The translations under genes and the position numbers were made by a program. The notes beneath the pieces were generated by a model that was not told the origin of the DNA, did no database searches, and was given only the letters and a program-made list of their open reading frames with translations. Below are positions 58 through 14,902 of a stretch of DNA of 21,151 bases, piece after piece. Positions within the stretch are counted from its first letter, which is position 1; each line of letters opens with the position of its first letter. This stretch comes from a virus: IMG/VR virus record IMGVR_UViG_3300046011_009924, positions 1 to 21,151 of that record; one strand, given 5' to 3'.

Positions 58-65
58 TATTTATA
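58..65 (+). promoter_or_regulatory. TATTTATA element upstream of first HNH gene
   Basis: An exact TATTTATA lies 9 nt before the ATG at 75 (15 nt before the alternative ATG at 81). It is one of eight exact intergenic copies in the window. It matches T4 late box TATAAATA at 6 of 8 positions. No -35-like partner is evident. The promoter role is inferred from position and recurrence. Confidence 0.5.
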
Positions 66-74
66 ATCAAATAT

Positions 75-668
75 ATGATTATGACTAAAGAAGAAAGAAA
101 ACTTTATATGCAAGAATATAGAAAAACTGAAAAGTGGAAAACATCAAAGAAAGAATCTGATAAAAAGTATTATCAAAGAAATAAAAATCAACAAAAAATT
201 CGTTCTCAAAAATGGAAAGAAGAAAATCTTGAAAAATTTTATGAGTATACCAAAGAATGGAGTAAAAATAATCCTGATAAAATAAAATATTCTCAAAAAT
301 TATATAGAGAAAATAACCCTCATTATAAGATTAGAAATTTATTCCATAATTTAAAAAAACAAAATTATCAAAATCTAATCAAACCCCAATTTGAACTTAT
401 AAAAAAACATATAGAAAATCAATTTAATAAAAATATGAATTGGGGTAATATTGAAATAGACCACAAAATACCAATTAGTTGGTTCAACAAAGAAACCCCA
501 GATAACTTAATTAATGATTTAAGAAATTTACATCCTCTTCTTAAAGAAGATAATCGTAAAAAGGCTGCTAGTTATTGCAATGTAATTTCTCTTGAATATT
601 TTTATGATATAAAAATGTATGTTAAAGAGGATAGGATCAAACAGATAATAGAAACCCTTTCTTTATAA
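75..668 (+). CDS. HNH endonuclease, probable homing endonuclease
   Basis: This 197-residue basic protein probably makes DNA breaks that spread its own gene. The C-terminal half carries an HNH signature: EIDHKIP (D129, H130), then NDLRNLHPL (N151, H153) and EDNRKK (N160). Residues 110-130 resemble the same part of the second HNH protein in this window (HxExQF...MNWxN...EIDH), so the two belong to one family. The N-terminal 80 residues are Lys/Tyr-rich short motifs (ERKLYMQEYRK, KKYYQRNK) common in phage HNH proteins and probably contact DNA. ATG 75 gives MIMTKEE; ATG 81 is an equally plausible start. The gene sits alone between two TATTTATA elements ahead of the gene preceding terminase, a typical free-standing endonuclease position. 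HNH assignment is firm; homing activity is inferred. Confidence 0.85.
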   Translation: MIMTKEERKLYMQEYRKTEKWKTSKKESDKKYYQRNKNQQKIRSQKWKEENLEKFYEYTKEWSKNNPDKIKYSQKLYRENNPHYKIRNLFHNLKKQNYQNLIKPQFELIKKHIENQFNKNMNWGNIEIDHKIPISWFNKETPDNLINDLRNLHPLLKEDNRKKAASYCNVISLEYFYDIKMYVKEDRIKQIIETLSL

Positions 669-676
669 TATTTATA
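669..676 (+). promoter_or_regulatory. TATTTATA element upstream of the tandem-repeat gene
   Basis: This exact copy begins directly after the HNH stop codon at 666-668 and ends 33 nt before the ATG at 710. The intervening leader is A-rich and has no Shine-Dalgarno sequence. It could launch a transcript covering the repeat protein and terminase, because no further copy lies before the terminase gene. Confidence 0.5.
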
Positions 677-8990: not shown

Positions 8991-9020
8991 AACGCACTCC
9001 TTAAAAAGAGTGCGTTTTTT
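8991..9020 (+). terminator. rho-independent terminator after protease gene
   Basis: A 9-bp perfect stem AACGCACTC/GAGTGCGTT (8991-8999 and 9008-9016) has an 8-nt loop and runs into a T tract ending about 9020. It lies 39 nt after the gp21 stop and separates the portal-protease operon from scaffold and capsid. Confidence 0.92.
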
Positions 9021-9137
9021 ATCTCCCTGTACATATTTATGAATGTCTTATGATAGATTATCCTAATATAATCTCCCTCGCAATAAAAAATTCTATATTA
9101 CTTCTCAATAAGTAATCACAAACAATCACAAATTATT
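9021..9137 (+). promoter_or_regulatory. structured 5' leader of scaffold/capsid transcript with TATTTAT box
   Basis: This is the longest leader in the window. TATTTATG at 9034-9041 is a one-mismatch copy of the TATTTATA element. Two hairpins follow, each with a 7-bp stem and 6-nt loop: AGATTAT/ATAATCT (9055-9074) and ATTACTT/AAGTAAT (9097-9116). ATCTCCCT occurs at 9021-9028 and 9071-9078, and AATCACAAA repeats at 9114-9122 and 9124-9132, just before the ATG. It may stabilise or tune the most abundant late mRNA. The structure is read from sequence; the function is inferred. Confidence 0.5.
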
Positions 9138-10100
9138 ATGGCAAACGAAAACACTAAAATCTTTAGTGAAGCAATCGCTGAAGCAAAAGCTATTAGAGAA
9201 ACCGCTATGGCTAACGCAAAACTTGCTCTTGAAGAAGCTTTCACTCCTCGTATTCAAGAAATGATGAATAATAGATTAGCATCATTATCTGAAGAAGAAG
9301 AAATGGACGAAGAATTTAAAAAATCAAATGGTGCTTCACCCGATGATCAAATGGATGAAATTTCATTAGAAGAATTATTAGCTGAACTTGAAGGTCTTGA
9401 AGAAAGCAGCTATTCAGAAAAAGATGGATATGTTGATCCTGGAGTAAATGACCCTTACATGGAAGAAAACGAAATTTTTGAAGTTGAAGATGACGACACA
9501 GTAGCTGAAATTACAGTTGATGATTTAAAAGATATCATCAGAGATGTAGTAGCAGATCTATTAGGTGGTCCAGAAGAAGAAGAAATAGCAGATGAAGAAG
9601 AAATGGCAGGTGAAGAAGAAGAAGCTGAAAACAGTGAAATGGAAGATGAATTAAGTTTAGAAGAAATTTTAGCTGAACTTGATTTAGATGAAACTTACGC
9701 ATATGACGATGTCCCTGAAGATAATCCAGATGATATTGAAGATGATAAAGAACTTGAAGAAGCTATGTCAACTATCGCTCAACTACGTTCTGAATTAAAT
9801 GAAGTTAATCTTCTAAATGCAAAATTACTTTACGTTAACAAGTTGTTCAAATCTAAAAACTTAACAGAAGCTCAAAAAGTAAAAGTTATTAATGCTTTTG
9901 ATAGAGCTGAAACTGTAAAAGAAACTAAGAACATTTTTGAAACGTTACAAGAATCATTAACAGCTACTCAAGCTAAAAAGAATCCAATTAAAGAATCTCT
10001 TTCATTTGCTTCTAAACCAGCGGGTGTTGCTGATAGAAAACCAATCGTTGAAAACAACGATTTTGTAGCAAGAATGCAAAAACTTGCTGGAATTATTTAA
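9138..10100 (+). CDS. 22: prohead core scaffold protein, T4 gp22-like
   Basis: This is the major scaffold around which the capsid shell assembles, later degraded by gp21. The protein is 320 residues and extremely acidic in the middle (Glu/Asp runs at 50-60, 113-121, 145-173 and 190-208), as expected for T4-type scaffolds. The N-terminus (SEAIAEAKAIRETAMANAKL, then EEAFTPRIQEMM) and C-terminus (NNDFVARMQKLAGI) match scaffolds of environmental T4-like phages. Residues 210-275 form the conserved Leu-rich coiled coil (LRSELNEVNLLNAKLLYVNK, then AQKVKVINAFDRAETVKETK). Two near-copies of SLEE(L/I)LAEL, at 76-84 and 173-181, sit in the acidic region. The gene lies between gp21 and gp23, as in T4. 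It has its own terminator-isolated, structured leader and probably shares its mRNA with the capsid gene. Confidence 0.9.
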   Translation: MANENTKIFSEAIAEAKAIRETAMANAKLALEEAFTPRIQEMMNNRLASLSEEEEMDEEFKKSNGASPDDQMDEISLEELLAELEGLEESSYSEKDGYVDPGVNDPYMEENEIFEVEDDDTVAEITVDDLKDIIRDVVADLLGGPEEEEIADEEEMAGEEEEAENSEMEDELSLEEILAELDLDETYAYDDVPEDNPDDIEDDKELEEAMSTIAQLRSELNEVNLLNAKLLYVNKLFKSKNLTEAQKVKVINAFDRAETVKETKNIFETLQESLTATQAKKNPIKESLSFASKPAGVADRKPIVENNDFVARMQKLAGII

Positions 10101-10137
10101 AAAATTAAAAACAACAAAAAATTAAAAAATTAAAAAC
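10101..10137 (+). promoter_or_regulatory. A-rich translation leader of major capsid gene
   Basis: The 37-nt gap before the capsid ATG is almost entirely A and T with repeated AATTAAAAA blocks and no Shine-Dalgarno sequence or TATTTATA. In Bacteroidota, A-rich upstream regions favour strong initiation, which would suit the most abundant virion protein. The effect is inferred. Confidence 0.4.
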
Positions 10138-11820
10138 ATGTCAAATTTAGTAAATTCACTATTAGAGACTGCTAACCCATATACATCTATTCAAAAAGAT
10201 GCAGCTAGACTAGCTGGAAAATGGGGTAAGTCAGGTCTTTTAGAAGGTATTTCTAATGAAACTGATAAGTCTAACATGGCTATCATCTTAGAAAACCAAG
10301 CAAAACAATTAGTAGTAGAGTCTTCAAACACAGGTACTGGAGCATCTTTTACTGCAGGAACAGGTGAGCAATATGCTGCTGTAGCGTTACCATTAGTACG
10401 TAAAGTATTTGGTCAATTAGCCGCTAAAGAATTCGTTTCTGTTCAACCAATGAGCTTACCAGCTGGTTTGGTATTCTTCTTAGATTTCCAATATGGAACT
10501 AACATAGAACCATTTTCAACTGCAGCAGGTACTAACTCAATGTACGGTAACAACTCAGCTAACTTCGGTAACGAAAGAGCAGGTGGTTTATATGGTGCTG
10601 GTAGATTTGGATACTCATCTAACCAATTTTCAGGTTCACACGTTTCTGGTACCCTTTTACAAGCTGCCGCGACAAAAGCAACTTTAACAGCTACTACAGC
10701 TTCATGGGCTGATATTTATTTTGATGCTGATTTATCTGCTTCTCAAGCTGCTGGTTTAATTAAAGCTTTAACTTTACCAACTTCAAGTATTACAAGTTGT
10801 GATGTAAACGCTATCCGTGCTTTTGCGGTAAGTGGTTCAGGATCATTTACTACAGCTAAACAATTACCACAATTTACTCAATTAAACTTAGTACCAGGTA
10901 ACATTACTTACTTCTTTACAGCTTCAACTGCTGAGGTAGTAGCTGCGCTTTCTGGTTTAACTACTGTATTCTATAGTAAACAAACTGCTGATAATGCAAG
11001 AGGTGACTTCGAAGATGCATCAGGTGCTGGATATCCAAACGCTGAATCTCAAACTGCAATTGTTATCCCAGAAATTAATGTTCAAATGAGATCAGAAGCT
11101 ATTGTTGCTAAAACACGTAAGTTAAAAGCTCAATGGACCCCAGAGTTCTCTCAAGATTTAAATGCATTCCATTCACTTGATGCTGAAGCTGAATTAACTT
11201 CTATCTTATCAGAGTATATCTCATTAGAGATTGATCTTGAAATTTTAGATATGTTAATCCAAAACGTTCCAGCTAACCAAGTTGAATTTTGGTCTGCAAA
11301 AGTAGGTACAGCTGTTGCAAACGGTGCTGTTACAACTAACACAGCAGGTGTTTATTACACTCAAATGTCTTGGTTCCAAACTTTAGGAATTAAATTACAA
11401 AAGATTTCTAACATTATTCACCAAAGAACTTTAAGAGGTGGTGCTAACTTTATGGTAGTATCTCCAACAGTTGCTACAGTATTAGAATCAATCCCAGGAT
11501 TTGCTGCTGATACAGATGGCGATGCAGCTAAAATGAACTATGCATTTGGTGTTCAGAAAATTGGTTCATTAAATTCTAGATACAAAGTTTACAAAAACCC
11601 TTACATGTTAGAAAACACTATCTTGTTAGGATTTAGAGGTAACCAATTCTTAGAATCAGGTGCAGTTTATGCTCCATATGTTCCACTTATCATGACTCCA
11701 TTAGTATACGATCCAAATACTTTCACTCCTCGCAAGGGGATAATGACAAGATATGCTAAGAAAATGGTACGTCCGGAATTTTACGGAAAAGTAATGGTAT
11801 TAGATACCAACCTTATCTAA
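10138..11820 (+). CDS. 23: major capsid protein precursor, T4 gp23-like
   Basis: This protein forms the hexamers of the head shell. At 560 residues it is a little longer than T4 gp23 (521). An N-terminal propeptide of about 60 residues contains LENQAKQLVVE (51-61), corresponding to the T4 region just before gp21 cleavage. Cleavage after an acidic site such as E52 or E61 is likely but unproven. The HK97-fold core is recognisable: RKVFGQLAAKEFVSVQPMSL with PAGLVFFLDFQYGT (88-121), then the family-typical AIVAKTRKLKAQWTPEFSQD (321-340) and LDAEAELTSILSEYISLEID (347-366). Residues ~135-305 form a Gly/Ser/Thr-rich insertion region, variable in the family. The C-terminus ends FYGKVMVLDTNLI. A strong terminator follows 24 nt after the stop. 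The gene lies directly downstream of the scaffold gene, as in T4. Confidence 0.97.
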   Translation: MSNLVNSLLETANPYTSIQKDAARLAGKWGKSGLLEGISNETDKSNMAIILENQAKQLVVESSNTGTGASFTAGTGEQYAAVALPLVRKVFGQLAAKEFVSVQPMSLPAGLVFFLDFQYGTNIEPFSTAAGTNSMYGNNSANFGNERAGGLYGAGRFGYSSNQFSGSHVSGTLLQAAATKATLTATTASWADIYFDADLSASQAAGLIKALTLPTSSITSCDVNAIRAFAVSGSGSFTTAKQLPQFTQLNLVPGNITYFFTASTAEVVAALSGLTTVFYSKQTADNARGDFEDASGAGYPNAESQTAIVIPEINVQMRSEAIVAKTRKLKAQWTPEFSQDLNAFHSLDAEAELTSILSEYISLEIDLEILDMLIQNVPANQVEFWSAKVGTAVANGAVTTNTAGVYYTQMSWFQTLGIKLQKISNIIHQRTLRGGANFMVVSPTVATVLESIPGFAADTDGDAAKMNYAFGVQKIGSLNSRYKVYKNPYMLENTILLGFRGNQFLESGAVYAPYVPLIMTPLVYDPNTFTPRKGIMTRYAKKMVRPEFYGKVMVLDTNLI

Positions 11821-11844
11821 GAATATCTTAAATAATTAAGAAAG

Positions 11845-11872
11845 TGCCTAGCAAAAGCTAGGCATTTTTTTT
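11845..11872 (+). terminator. rho-independent terminator after major capsid gene
   Basis: The stem TGCCTAGC/GCTAGGCA (11845-11852 and 11857-11864) has an AAAA loop and is followed by eight T residues. Its 7-bp core GCCTAGC/GCTAGGC is identical to the terminator after the second HNH gene. Confidence 0.95.
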
Positions 11873-11914
11873 ACATTAAATTAAAACAGATATAATACCT
11901 TTTCTTTTTTTTTA

Positions 11915-11922
11915 TATTTATA
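11915..11922 (+). promoter_or_regulatory. TATTTATA element upstream of second HNH gene
   Basis: This exact copy lies 21 nt before ATG 11944, after a T-rich tract. The following bases (TATTTATATTAAATAATAA, then TTATG) match the leader of the gp13-like gene at 13188-13212 except for one extra A there. Confidence 0.5.
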
Positions 11923-11943
11923 TTAAATAATAATTATGAAAAT

Positions 11944-12447
11944 ATGATTTGTACTATATGCAATATTTCTAAATCATTAGAAAATTTTTATGATTCTTCT
12001 AAACATAAAAATGGTAAGTTACAAGGATGTAAAGAATGTAGAAAAGTTAAAGAACGTTCTAAATACACAGGTGATTATCATAAAATCCGTCTTCAAAATT
12101 TAACTCTTGAACAAAAATTACAACGTACCCAACAATTAACTGAGAATGCTAGGAAGCGTAGAAAAGATCCTAAAACTAGATTAAAAGAATCTCTTAGAGC
12201 TAGAATTTATAATAGTATGAAAGATAATAAGGATCGTAGTACTTTAGAATATTTAGGATGTTCAATAGATCAATATAAAATACATTTAGAATTTCAATTT
12301 ACATTAAAAATGAATTGGGATAATTGGGGAATATATTGGGAAATTGATCATATAATACCATTAAGTAAAGGAGGGACTTTTCACTTTACTAATACCCAAC
12401 CACTTACTATTACTAATAATAGAAGAAAATCAAATAAGATAGCCTAG
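11944..12447 (+). CDS. HNH endonuclease with N-terminal zinc-binding motif, probable homing endonuclease
   Basis: This 167-residue protein probably cuts DNA and mobilises itself next to the capsid gene. Two CxxC pairs (C3/C6 and C29/C32) form a likely zinc finger at the N-terminus. The middle is basic (ENARKRRKDPKTRLKESLRA). A typical phage HNH linker (STLEYLGCSIDQYKIHLEFQ, 99-118) leads into the catalytic block WEIDHIIPLS (D135, H136), with FTNTQPL (N150) and TNNRRK (N159). The family matches the HNH protein near the window start. ATG 11944 is the first usable start, because ATG 11936 opens a three-codon frame that stops at once. The stop codon lies inside the terminator stem that follows. 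The gene interrupts the expected gp23-to-phoH spacing and carries its own element and terminator, so it looks like an inserted cassette. Confidence 0.88.
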   Translation: MICTICNISKSLENFYDSSKHKNGKLQGCKECRKVKERSKYTGDYHKIRLQNLTLEQKLQRTQQLTENARKRRKDPKTRLKESLRARIYNSMKDNKDRSTLEYLGCSIDQYKIHLEFQFTLKMNWDNWGIYWEIDHIIPLSKGGTFHFTNTQPLTITNNRRKSNKIA

Positions 12448-12466
12448 CGAAAGCTAGGCTTTTTTT
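12441..12466 (+). terminator. rho-independent terminator overlapping end of HNH gene
   Basis: The stem AGCCTAGC/GCTAGGCT (12441-12448 and 12453-12460) has a GAAA tetraloop and a T tract to 12466. The TAG stop (12445-12447) lies within the left arm. The stem core is identical to that of the capsid-gene terminator. Confidence 0.94.
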
Positions 12467-12470
12467 ATCA

Positions 12471-12478
12471 TATTTATA
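12471..12478 (+). promoter_or_regulatory. TATTTATA element upstream of phoH
   Basis: This exact copy lies immediately after the HNH terminator T tract and 20 nt before ATG 12499. Because a terminator directly precedes it, phoH most likely needs a promoter here. This is one of the better contextual arguments that the element is a promoter. Confidence 0.6.
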
Positions 12479-12498
12479 CTAAACTAAACGTTACTAAT

Positions 12499-13185
12499 AT
12501 GGCATCAAATCATCACACTGATGAGGTTTTTACTCAAAAAAGAAAACCTAAAAACCCAATTAAGTTCAACCTACAACTTAATGAAGAACAAAAACAAGCA
12601 AAAGCCCTTATTATTGAAAATCCAGTAGTCGTTTTAAAAGGAATGGCAGGTTCAGGAAAAACTTTAGTAGCTGTACAAGCAGCATTAGATATGCTATTTA
12701 GTAGAGAAGTTGAAAAAATTATTATAACTCGACCTACTGTAGCTAAAGAAGAATTAGGATTTCTACCAGGCGATCTTAAAGAAAAGATGGATCCTTGGTT
12801 AGCACCAATATATCATAACTTATACATGTTATATGGTAAGGATAAAATTGAAAAAGAATTAGAATATGGCAATATTGAAATTGTACCCTTTGCATTTATG
12901 AGGGGAAGAACATTTGTTAATTCATTTGTAATTGTAGATGAGGCACAAAACGTGACTCATGATCAAATGGAGACTGTATTAGGACGTTTAGGAAAAGGAT
13001 CTAAAATGGTGGTATGTGGAGATTTAGCTCAAATTGATCTTAAAGTAAAAAAAGAAACAGGATTTTCATTTTTAACTAGAGTTGAAGAGCAAGTGAAAGG
13101 ATTTAGAGTATTCGCATTGCAAGCTAATCATAGACATGATATTGTTGCGCCTATTTTAAAAGTATACCAAGACTTTAGAGATTAA
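12499..13185 (+). CDS. phoH: PhoH-family P-loop ATPase
   Basis: This 228-residue protein is a PhoH-like NTPase, a family widespread in marine and other environmental phages. Its role in infection is unsettled; proposals include phosphate stress and RNA metabolism. Walker A is GMAGSGKT (48-55), ITRPTVAKEELGFLPGDL (76-93) is the family's conserved arginine-containing region, Walker B is VIVDEAQN (144-151), and GDLAQID (174-180) plus ANHRHDIVAPIL (209-220) complete the helicase-like core. There is no N-terminal PIN domain, so it is the short cytoplasmic type. It sits between the capsid and neck genes with its own TATTTATA element, downstream of the HNH cassette terminator. Within a late structural block, its expression is probably late. 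Confidence 0.95.
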   Translation: MASNHHTDEVFTQKRKPKNPIKFNLQLNEEQKQAKALIIENPVVVLKGMAGSGKTLVAVQAALDMLFSREVEKIIITRPTVAKEELGFLPGDLKEKMDPWLAPIYHNLYMLYGKDKIEKELEYGNIEIVPFAFMRGRTFVNSFVIVDEAQNVTHDQMETVLGRLGKGSKMVVCGDLAQIDLKVKKETGFSFLTRVEEQVKGFRVFALQANHRHDIVAPILKVYQDFRD

Positions 13186-13187
13186 AA

Positions 13188-13195
13188 TATTTATA
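13188..13195 (+). promoter_or_regulatory. TATTTATA element upstream of neck genes
   Basis: This exact copy begins 3 nt after the phoH stop and ends 14 nt before ATG 13210. It is the last exact copy in the window. The tightly spaced genes from gp13 to the first fibre follow without another, so they may form one long unit. Confidence 0.5.
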
Positions 13196-13209
13196 TTAAA
13201 TAATAAATT

Positions 13210-14376
13210 ATGGCTAATTCACAAGTTTGGACAGGAATTGCAAACTTTATACCAGGGGCTTCAACTCCCTTTGGTTTTTATGATAATGATTATCAATTCC
13301 AAATAGATGCGGTAAAAGTAGCAAAATTCTGTGCTCAAAGATTAGGGTATCCCTCAATGGATGTTGAGATGGATAGTGGTTCATTTTTCGCTTGTTTTGA
13401 AGAAGCAGTAACAACTTATGGAAATGAACTTTACTTATATCAAATTAGAAATAATTTTATATCATTAGAAGCTAACCCAAATAATGTAACACTTAATAAT
13501 TCAGTAATTACTCCTTCATTAGGTAATATAATTAGAATGGCTTCTGATTATGGTAGTGAAGCAGGAGTAGGAGGACATATAACTTACTATTCAGGCTCAT
13601 TAGATATGATAGCAGGTCAACAAGATTATGACTTAGCAGCTTGGGCTTCAGCTTCAGGAGTAATATCAGGAAATGATTCAATTGAGATAAAAACTATTTT
13701 TTATGAAAACGCTCCTGCTATTGTTCGTTATTTTGACCCTTATGCTGGTACAGGATACGGATCACAACAATTACTAGATGCCTTTGGATTTGGTAATAAA
13801 TCTCCTGCTATTAACTTTATGTTAATGCCTCTTAATTATGATATTGCAACAATTCAAGCAATTGAATTAAATGATCAAATAAGAAGAAGTGCATTCTCAT
13901 TTAATATTATAAATAATAAATTAAAAATATTCCCTATTCCAACATCTGATAAAAAACTATTCTTTGAGTACATCAAAGTATCAGAAAGAAATAGTGTAGT
14001 AGCTGCTTCAGGACCTGGTTCAGGAGATAATTTAATTACAGACATATCAAATGTACCTTATGAGAATCCTACATACATGAATGTAAATGCTCCTGGTAGA
14101 TATTGGATATTTGAATATACTTTAGCACTAGCTGCTGAAACATTAGCATTTATTAGAGGTAAATATACTCAAGTACCTATTCCAGGCGCAGAAGTAACGT
14201 TAAATCAGGCAGATTTACTAGGAAAAGCTAGGGATTTACAACTGGCGTTAATTGAAAAATTACGTTTAGATTTAGACGAGGCTTCACGTAAGAATCAATT
14301 AGAAAGGAAAAAAGCTGAAAATGATGCTATGCAATCTACGTTATCGAATATACCAATGAACATTTATATAGGATAA
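13210..14376 (+). CDS. 13: neck / head completion protein, T4 gp13-like
   Basis: This protein seals the filled head and joins it to the tail with gp14. The 388-residue product is longer than T4 gp13 (309). The N-terminal block around 38-76 (AKFCAQRLGYPSMDVEMDSG, then FFACFEEAVTTYGNELY) is characteristic of gp13 in environmental T4-like phages. So is the C-terminal block IRGKYTQVPIPGAEVTLNQA followed by EKLRLDLDEASRK (about 316-356). A central segment (IAGQQDYDLAAWASASG) is typical of neck or connector proteins that begin a beta-rich region. The short acidic/basic helical tail probably wraps neighbours. The gene begins a run of closely spaced tail-completion genes, with gp14 one base after its stop. 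Confidence 0.85.
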   Translation: MANSQVWTGIANFIPGASTPFGFYDNDYQFQIDAVKVAKFCAQRLGYPSMDVEMDSGSFFACFEEAVTTYGNELYLYQIRNNFISLEANPNNVTLNNSVITPSLGNIIRMASDYGSEAGVGGHITYYSGSLDMIAGQQDYDLAAWASASGVISGNDSIEIKTIFYENAPAIVRYFDPYAGTGYGSQQLLDAFGFGNKSPAINFMLMPLNYDIATIQAIELNDQIRRSAFSFNIINNKLKIFPIPTSDKKLFFEYIKVSERNSVVAASGPGSGDNLITDISNVPYENPTYMNVNAPGRYWIFEYTLALAAETLAFIRGKYTQVPIPGAEVTLNQADLLGKARDLQLALIEKLRLDLDEASRKNQLERKKAENDAMQSTLSNIPMNIYIG

Positions 14377-14377
14377 T

Positions 14378-14902
14378 ATGGCATATTTTGGACGTTCTCG
14401 CGATATAAATACTTTTTCAAATATCAACAATGAGTTGTTGGGACAAGTAATTGAACAAAAAGTTGGTTACTACCAAGTTATTTTAGATGAAACTACACCT
14501 AACATTTACGGTGAAAGTACAAATAAAAAATACAATGGTCCAGTATTATTAACTTGCTTATTAGAAAGAGGTGATACTACTCCATTAACAGATGATTTTG
14601 GAATGGATTTTGAAAGAAAATTAACTGTAAGATTTTTCAGACCTAATTTAATAACAGCTAATGTTGAACCTTCAGTAGGTGATGTAATTTTATGGAATGA
14701 AGATTATTATGAAGTTAATAATGTAAATGAAAATCAATTAGTAGTTGGTAAAGATCCTAATTATGCTTATACAAGTCAAGATTTTGTTCCTGATGCAGGT
14801 ACAAGTTTATCAATAATACTAGAATGTTTCTATATCCGTCCAGAAAAAGTTAATATCAGAGAAAATAGATACCCAGGTGATCCTGGTTCTTTAACAGTTT
14901 AA
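14378..14902 (+). CDS. 14: neck protein, T4 gp14-like
   Basis: This protein probably forms the second neck ring between the gp13-sealed head and the tail. At 174 residues it is shorter than T4 gp14 (256). Residues 1-35 (GRSRDINTFSNINNELLGQV, then IEQKVGYYQVIL) and 78-125 (DFERKLTVRFFRPNLI, VGDVILWNEDYYEVNNV, NQLVVGKDPNY) follow the pattern of this family, in which a beta-barrel segment describes binding of a neighbouring ring. The C-terminal ENRYPGDPGSL is a flexible tail. Its position directly after gp13 and before a gp15-like gene repeats the T4 order 13-14-15 and is the main support beyond sequence feel. A partial TATTTATA match, CATTTATA at 14361, overlaps the gp13 end. Confidence 0.72.
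   Translation: MAYFGRSRDINTFSNINNELLGQVIEQKVGYYQVILDETTPNIYGESTNKKYNGPVLLTCLLERGDTTPLTDDFGMDFERKLTVRFFRPNLITANVEPSVGDVILWNEDYYEVNNVNENQLVVGKDPNYAYTSQDFVPDAGTSLSIILECFYIRPEKVNIRENRYPGDPGSLTV

What the first reader, a model, noticed from the sequence alone, without database searches (positions are those of the whole stretch)
11845..12498. HNH cassette bracketed by matching terminators
The terminators before (11845-11872) and after (12441-12466) the HNH gene share the 7-bp stem core GCCTAGC/GCTAGGC, and each is followed by TATTTATA. The unit element-HNH-terminator looks like an insertion between gp23 and phoH in which the capsid terminator was duplicated or copied, so that the downstream gene keeps a promoter and the capsid gene keeps termination. 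This is a possible low-cost insertion strategy for a homing gene.
Basis: partly seen in the sequence, partly recalled or inferred. Interest (0 to 1): 0.56.

Follow-up and report, generated by a model that had tools for sequence, protein, structure and literature searches.

The report
Insulated homing-nuclease cassette beside phage capsid gene
A small DNA-cutting gene has inserted between two genes of a Flavobacterium-type virus, with its own start and stop signals for transcription, and the viruses that carry it have silently rewritten a few codons of their capsid gene, probably so that the enzyme does not cut its own carrier.

Summary
Two near-identical terminators (T1 11845-11872, T2 12441-12466; 23 of 25 nt) bracket an HNH gene (11944-12447), and each is followed by TATTTATA. 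The stem is not a genome-wide repeat: it was found in 8 of 25 relative records, once each, always at this gap.

"Terminator duplicated at the site" is only partly right. In an HNH-bearing phage with an unrelated native terminator (L186), T1 is still the CCTAGC type while T2 resembles that lineage's own. T1 therefore seems to travel with the HNH gene and T2 to be the recipient's. Exception: L050.

The strongest result lies outside the given coordinates. Carriers of this HNH family have synonymously recoded gp23 codons 532-538 (RKGIMTR), 4 of 4 lineages. A second, unrelated nuclease family at the same gap recodes the same codons. No other part of gp23, and no part of phoH, shows this. Some empty relatives keep the recoding plus a chimeric terminator or decayed HNH leader, as expected after loss.

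Best reading: a free-standing homing gene targeting this conserved capsid segment, moving as recoded capsid tail-terminator-late box-HNH. Cleavage was not tested.

The parts
10138..11820 (+). gp23 major capsid gene, upstream neighbour and proposed homing target gene
   Evidence: Pfam PF07068 E 2e-73
11731..11754 (+). recoded capsid codons 532-539 (CGC AAG GGG ATA ATG ACA AGA TAT); proposed altered homing target
   Evidence: codon scans and controls, tree test, prospective pattern scan; only CGC and only GGG codon of this gp23
11845..11872 (+). terminator T1, proposed to be imported with the HNH gene
   Evidence: T1-type scan; foreign in L186
11895..11906 (-). stretch whose reverse complement (AAGAAAAGGTAT) matches the unrecoded capsid target; possible operator, weak evidence
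   Evidence: post hoc
11915..11922 (+). TATTTATA box 21 nt before the HNH start, late-promoter-like
   Evidence: promoter role is inference
11944..12447 (+). HNH endonuclease gene, 167 aa, N-terminal CxxC...CxxC, C-terminal DH...N...NRRKSNK
   Evidence: PF01844 E 5e-4 (20.5 bits, cut-off 21.4); phrog_1035 E 2e-22; relative L186 passes the Pfam cut-offs of PF01844 and PF14279
12441..12466 (+). terminator T2, the resident gp23 terminator; contains the HNH stop codon 12445-12447
   Evidence: identical stem and loop in empty relatives L003, L009, L010; right arm to phoH 55 of 58 nt identical to L003 and to L009
12471..12478 (+). TATTTATA box of phoH
   Evidence: equivalent box in empty sites
12499..13185 (+). 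phoH, downstream neighbour
   Evidence: PF02562 E 6e-66

Best explanation
The cassette is a free-standing (intronless) homing gene. Shown: an HNH gene occupies a gap that is empty in close relatives; it and several unrelated genes use the same gap; its carriers are scattered on the capsid tree; all carriers of this HNH family have the same rare synonymous codons at gp23 532-538. Inferred: the HNH enzyme recognises the ordinary coding of this conserved capsid segment about 200 bp upstream of its own gene, breaks HNH-less genomes there, and repair from the carrier copies the recoded, uncuttable capsid tail together with T1, the late box and the HNH gene. The right-hand join falls just before or in the recipient's own terminator, which stays as T2. 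The carrier so keeps capsid termination (T1), gives the HNH gene its own late box, ends the HNH transcript at T2 and leaves the phoH box untouched. Later the gene can be lost, by recombination between T1 and T2 (L043 lineage) or by deletion (L280/L282/L283), while the recoded capsid remains.
For: (1) Empty sites: one terminator, one box; T2 and the phoH side of the window match empty L003. (2) Independent ascertainment by HNH profile: all 4 contigs with at least 70% HNH identity lie at gp23-phoH and all 4 are recoded. (3) Codon scan of gp23: HNH-A carriers peak only at codons 532-538 (best 8-codon window 31.0, next elsewhere 7.1; three recoded non-carriers left out); with all 84 non-carriers kept, 27.6 against a largest value of 9.8 in 300 random sets of four non-carriers; phoH control 7.2. 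(4) An unrelated nuclease family (C) peaks at the same column, 15.1-17.1. (5) On a tree that excludes the block, 7 independent carrier/non-carrier pairs, recoding follows in 7 of 7, p 0.016. (6) Scan for the recoded DNA: 11 contigs, 7 with a nuclease gene directly after gp23. (7) T1-type scan: 9 of 9 contigs at this gap. (8) L280/L282/L283 keep T1, recoding and a leader remnant (score 66, largest of 500 shuffles 54). (9) L043 lineage: recoded, empty, terminator TGCC...GGCT, half T1 and half T2. (10) In gp23's last 150 nt the window is nearer to carrier L017 (91%) than to L003 (82%); at the phoH start nearer to L003 (97% against 88%).
Against: No cleavage, binding or homing was measured. Capsid-side co-conversion is weak outside the block: of 19 informative sites in the last 106 nt, 16 are L017-like, but 9 of these are the recoded codons, leaving 7 to 3. 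L050 does not fit the T2 rule: its T2 is T1-like while its sisters' terminators are of another type. The distant HNH family B at the same gap is not recoded (1 of 17 at score 3 or more), so the link is not a property of the gap. L267/L268, distant relatives of family C, are not recoded. L178 is recoded without nuclease or known scar. One of the 7 pairs (L184) was found by the recoded block itself; without it 6 of 6, about p 0.03 (my arithmetic).
Confidence: 0.68

Rival explanations
1. The recoded segment is only hitch-hiking: a capsid-tail allele linked to the HNH gene that spread by recombination, with no role in immunity.
For: It is physically linked (about 200 bp) and T1 travels with it.
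Against: Between window and L093 the terminator and spacer next to the HNH gene are unrelated while the farther block keeps 23 identical nt. HNH codons of the same pair agree at only 60 of 114 identical residues. Unrelated family C shows the same recoding. But the two capsid genes agree at 200 of 330 codons overall, so single codon agreements mean little.
Confidence: 0.2
2. True local duplication: the recipient's own terminator was copied as the HNH gene went in.
For: T1 and T2 are 92% alike over 25 nt, and the stem occurs only at this gap in the 25 records tested.
Against: T1's outer T-A pair is absent from the empty sites printed and recurs with the HNH gene in a lineage with another native terminator (L186).
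Confidence: 0.15
3. The HNH gene is a domesticated phage function (for example packaging) and not a homing gene.
For: HNH genes next to terminase can serve packaging in HK97-type phages (passage in PMC10448857).
Against: Optional gene, patchy on the tree, same gap taken by GIY-YIG genes and by unrelated non-nuclease genes.
Confidence: 0.07
4. The recoded block is a regulatory element (promoter or operator) for the downstream nuclease gene, not a cut site.
For: It lies upstream of the gene, and leaders of families A and C carry short matches to the ordinary segment (4 of 8 at p 0.05 or less, against 3 of 107 in B, other inserts and empty sites).
Against: Unrelated nuclease families share it; it persists after loss of the gene.
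Confidence: 0.08

Closest known systems
Free-standing (intronless) homing endonucleases of T4: seg and mob genes (PMC2988022, passages read)
   Same: Optional nuclease gene between conserved genes; proposed target in the neighbouring gene; need to fit the host's transcription; segD lies between genes 23 and 24 in T4.
   Different: Target here is proposed in the capsid 3' end about 200 bp from the gene (the review gives hundreds to thousands of bp); the gene has its own upstream terminator and late-type box and ends in the resident terminator, whereas seven T4 ones are described as promoter-less.
Phage phiPA3 gp210 against phiKZ gp178 (PMC11620839, passages read)
   Same: There 17 silent changes near the target, made in the laboratory, protected the target gene; here a natural counterpart is proposed.
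   Different: gp210 is intron-encoded; its carrier is protected otherwise.
F-CphI and collaborative homing, cyanophage S-PM2 (PMC6083498, passages read)
   Same: Free-standing nuclease beside its target gene; the best PHROG hit of the HNH protein is labelled endonuclease VII.
   Different: There an intron protects the carrier; here synonymous codons would.
PeSLs, promoter-stem-loop cassettes of T4-type phages (cited in PMC4503421, passages read; original papers not held)
   Same: Stem-loop plus promoter as a joint at which genes are exchanged.
   Different: PeSLs use early promoters and are dense in shuffled regions; this stem occurs once per genome in non-carriers and goes with a late-type box.

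Membership tests
Free-standing homing endonuclease | Recognisable nuclease domain | tested here: met
   PF01844 E 5e-4, just under its curated cut-off, residues 131-164; phrog_1035 E 2e-22; relative L186 above cut-off
Free-standing homing endonuclease | Own gene in an intergenic gap between conserved genes, not in an intron | tested here: met
   ORF 11944-12447 between intact gp23 and phoH; no Rfam match that reaches a family's gathering score in 9000-14500
Free-standing homing endonuclease | Optional, with empty sites in close relatives | tested here: met
   45 of 80 PhoH loci have the short gap
Free-standing homing endonuclease | Patchy distribution not following the host-gene tree | tested here: met
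   4 carriers need 4 changes, forced by starred branches
Free-standing homing endonuclease | Carrier allele differs at the target so that it is not cut | tested here: inconclusive
   Recoding tracks the gene but resistance was not assayed
Free-standing homing endonuclease | Cuts HNH-less genomes and is inherited preferentially | not testable with these tools
   needs protein and mixed infection
Free-standing homing endonuclease | Co-conversion of flanking DNA | tested here: inconclusive
PeSL cassette | Stem-loop repeated across the genome | tested here: not met
   one copy of the exact stem per record in the 8 of 25 records that have it
PeSL cassette | Early promoter attached | tested here: not met
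   the attached box is TATTTATA, found before head and capsid genes; its late character is inferred
Group I intron homing gene | Intron RNA around the gene | tested here: not met
   gp23 and phoH uninterrupted

The most novel reading that the evidence does not exclude
Several unrelated homing nucleases have converged on one conserved capsid segment (gp23 RKGIMTRY) of Flavobacterium-type T4-like phages, and carriers protect themselves by natural synonymous recoding. The recoded capsid tail and the insulating terminator travel with the nuclease as one module, and the resident terminator acts as the landing joint and, paired with T1, as an excision joint. The recoding outlives the gene and so records past invasions. 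The nuclease may also bind a copy of its target in its own leader to limit its expression.
Probability: 0.4. Interest if true: 0.75.

Novelty: new variant of a known kind. Interest (0 to 1): 0.62.

Why it matters
If right, sequence alone predicts the cut site of an uncharacterised phage nuclease to about 24 bp and gives a natural example of silent-codon immunity, so far seen by me only as a laboratory construct (PMC11620839). It also gives a fossil record of gain and loss of a homing gene. The search by codon columns that are private to carriers could find targets of other free-standing nucleases in environmental phages. It explains why terminators flank such genes without calling on a special duplication mechanism.

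Tried and rejected
Genome-wide mobile terminator (PeSL) reading: rejected, the stem occurs once per record in the 8 of 25 records that have it. A broader scan for the T2-type 25-mer found 18 contigs: 12 between gp23 and phoH, 1 at a contig edge next to phoH (L293), 1 after gp23 but before another gene (L300) and 4 in unrelated phage contexts (L287, L288, L292, L299), so that stem is not exclusive to this gap.

HNH family B as a second case of the same target: rejected by the codon scan (best window elsewhere, 11.4 at codon 313, not followed up) and by the score table. GIY-YIG inserts: no common recoding (1 of 4 at score 3 or more).

Operator in the leader: tested in two ways. Against the whole gp23 only the window's own leader reached p 0.045, with its best match at the target; against the target alone 4 of 8 A and C leaders reached p 0.05 or less, against 3 of 107 others; the 5 GIY-YIG leaders (1 of 5) were left out of that comparison. 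This was a post hoc idea and the leaders of window, L017 and L186 are homologous. Kept as a lead only.

AlphaFold model of the HNH protein was poor (mean pLDDT 58.7) and was not used for fold searches. PDB sequence search gave only weak Cas9 HNH matches, E 0.014-0.022. Pairwise leader comparison of window with L283 was not significant (p 0.16), with L017 p 0.012; only L186 was clear (shuffles of single letters, not of pairs).

Rows dropped: L091, L002, L081, L082 and L182 are the window or its near-identical twin contig and were not counted as separate carriers. L043, L177 and L178 were left out of non-carriers and put back. Rows with under 350 residues before the block were left out of the tree (113 of 124 kept). 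Random sets were not matched for relatedness.

Family C has no Pfam match (L064, L110) and one PHROG of unknown function; that it is an HNH nuclease is my reading of its DHI...NL...N pattern.

Full report
What is in the window. The window is 21 kb of a T4-like phage head-gene region. PhoH gives the only named close relatives: the Flavobacterium immuto phages, 92% identity; all other named phages are under 60%. Their record shows the order gp20, protease, gp23, inserts, PhoH. The finding lies between gp23 (10138-11820) and phoH (12499-13185). T1 and T2 fold well. The HNH stop codon lies within the T2 stem.

Is the repeat meaningful? Yes. The exact stem pattern was sought in 25 related records and found in 8, once each, at positions that all fall in the gp23-phoH gap. 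Terminators at this gap are otherwise very diverse. T1 and T2 are therefore related by descent from the capsid terminator of this clade and not two draws of a common stem.

Empty sites. Of 80 loci found by PhoH, 45 have a gap of 85-124 bp, 30 a gap of 695-2156 bp or the 681 bp of the window type, and 5 do not reach gp23. Thirty short gaps were printed: by eye each has one hairpin with T run and one ATTTAT-type box. L003, L009 and L010 have exactly the T2 stem and loop. The longer gaps hold different genes: HNH genes, GIY-YIG genes (PF01541) and genes without a Pfam match above cut-off. The gap is an insertion hot spot. In L012 the insert ends in what looks like the 3' half of the resident terminator (by eye), again pointing to the terminator as landing place.

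Which terminator came with the gene? T1 in the window, L017, L007/L008 and L186 has an outer T-A pair that the printed empty sites lack. A scan of viral contigs for this T1 type found 9 contigs, all in the gp23-phoH gap: window twin, L017 and L186 contigs with HNH-A; two with HNH-B; one (L050) where the match is its second terminator; and three (L280, L282, L283) without HNH gene. In L186, whose tree sister is L099, T1 is the CCTAGC type but T2 and the phoH leader resemble L099's own terminator and leader. In the window, the T2-to-phoH arm is 55 of 58 nt identical to L003 and to L009. I infer that T1 is cargo and T2 resident. L050 does not follow this rule. L093 carries the same HNH family (71%) at the same gap behind an unrelated terminator and has no second one, so two terminators are not needed for the gene to persist.

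The capsid codons. Comparison of gp23 tails showed that carriers encode RKGIMTRY as CGC AAR GGG ATA ATG ACA AGA TAY, whereas nearly all others use AGA or CGT, AAA, GGT, ATC or ATT, ATG, ACT, CGT. In the window this is the only CGC and the only GGG of gp23. A column-by-column test along gp23 (4 HNH-A carriers, 82 non-carriers, 397 columns) put the top six columns at codons 532-538, and the best 8-codon window at 31.0 against 7.1 anywhere else. Three recoded non-carriers had been left out there; with all 84 kept the peak is 27.6, against a maximum of 9.8 in 300 random sets of four non-carriers, and the same scan of phoH gives 7.2. Family C, a different nuclease family by sequence, peaks at the same column (17.1, 15.1). 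HNH-B and GIY-YIG carriers do not. Random sets were not matched for relatedness, so a tree was built from gp23 before the block (113 rows): recoding score 3 or more in 4 of 4 HNH-A, 3 of 3 family C, 1 of 17 HNH-B, 1 of 4 GIY-YIG, 0 of 23 other inserts and 2 of 62 empty sites; seven independent pairs, seven agreeing, p 0.016. L184 had been found through the block; L186 was found both ways. As an ascertainment-free check, the HNH profile scan returned exactly four contigs with 70% identity or more, and all four are at this gap and recoded. A prospective scan for the recoded DNA returned 11 contigs: 7 with a nuclease gene directly after gp23, 4 without. A family C scan returned 17 loci: the four closest sit at this gap; three of them are recoded, the fourth (L266) is cut off inside the block but reads AGA at codon 538; two more distant ones at this gap (L267/L268) are not recoded.

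Loss. Two kinds of empty recoded site look like former carriers. The L043 lineage has a terminator that begins like T1 (TGCC) and ends like T2 (GGCT), the product expected from recombination between the two; a single point change could also make it. L280, L282 and L283 keep T1 and, between T1 and the phoH box, a stretch alignable to the L186 HNH leader (score 66, largest of 500 shuffles 54) with a degraded box. L178 is recoded with no scar that I can recognise.

Mechanism. Free-standing homing endonucleases cut the neighbouring conserved gene in genomes that lack them, and the donor copy differs at the target (PMC2988022 and PMC12724721, passages read). The data fit this with the capsid segment as target. 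Shown: insertion, hot spot, recoding and its localisation, T1 linkage. Inferred: cutting, immunity, repair route, transcriptional insulation, excision by T1 x T2. Capsid-side co-conversion has some support (last 150 nt of gp23: L017 91%, L003 82%; start of phoH: L003 97%, L017 88%), but outside the recoded codons only 7 of 10 informative sites in the last 106 nt favour L017. A leader match to the ordinary target, like the I-TevI operator (PMC2988022), is suggestive only.

Novelty. My searches of the open library for free-standing homing nucleases with synonymous or recoded targets listed no paper that, by title or abstract start, reports natural synonymous recoding of a capsid target; I read passages of six papers on phage genomes and nucleases closely (PMC2988022, PMC10448857, PMC6083498, PMC12724721, PMC11620839, PMC4503421) and the library lacks most subscription papers. 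The nearest is an artificial recoding in PMC11620839. I rate it a new variant of a known kind.

Noticed in passing
window 58-676: A second HNH-like gene (75-668; phrog_1035 E 5e-5) between two TATTTATA boxes at 58 and 669, without a matching terminator pair.
   Followed up: no
window, plus strand 58, 669, 3324, 5284, 6995, 11915, 12471, 13188: TATTTATA stands 3-33 nt before ORF starts in all 8 plus-strand cases. It is the reverse complement of the T4 late box TATAAATA (recalled), so this clade may use an inverted or different late motif.
   Followed up: partly
window 11937-11944: An upstream ATG at 11937 is out of frame with the HNH gene by one base compared with L017, which starts three codons earlier; the window copy may start at 11944 or be slightly damaged at its N-terminus.
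   Followed up: no
L060 4352-4954: A GIY-YIG gene whose first residues (MSSNHHTDEVF) are those of PhoH: it seems to have entered the start of phoH and taken over its leader.
   Followed up: no
L184, phoH after gp23: PhoH appears interrupted by an intein-like insertion with a long extra reading frame, next to a recoded capsid tail and a family C nuclease gene.
   Followed up: no
L003-L006: PhoH 96-98% identical to the window while gp23 ranges from 91% down to 53%: capsid genes and phoH are exchanged separately across this gap.
   Followed up: no
gp23 codons 311-320 in HNH-B carriers: Weak codon peak (11.4) in HNH-B carriers, possibly relatedness, possibly another target.
   Followed up: no
immuto_2-6A 128591-130514 (L174): In the named Flavobacterium phage the same gap holds a gene annotated tail fiber protein and a hypothetical protein.
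   Followed up: partly
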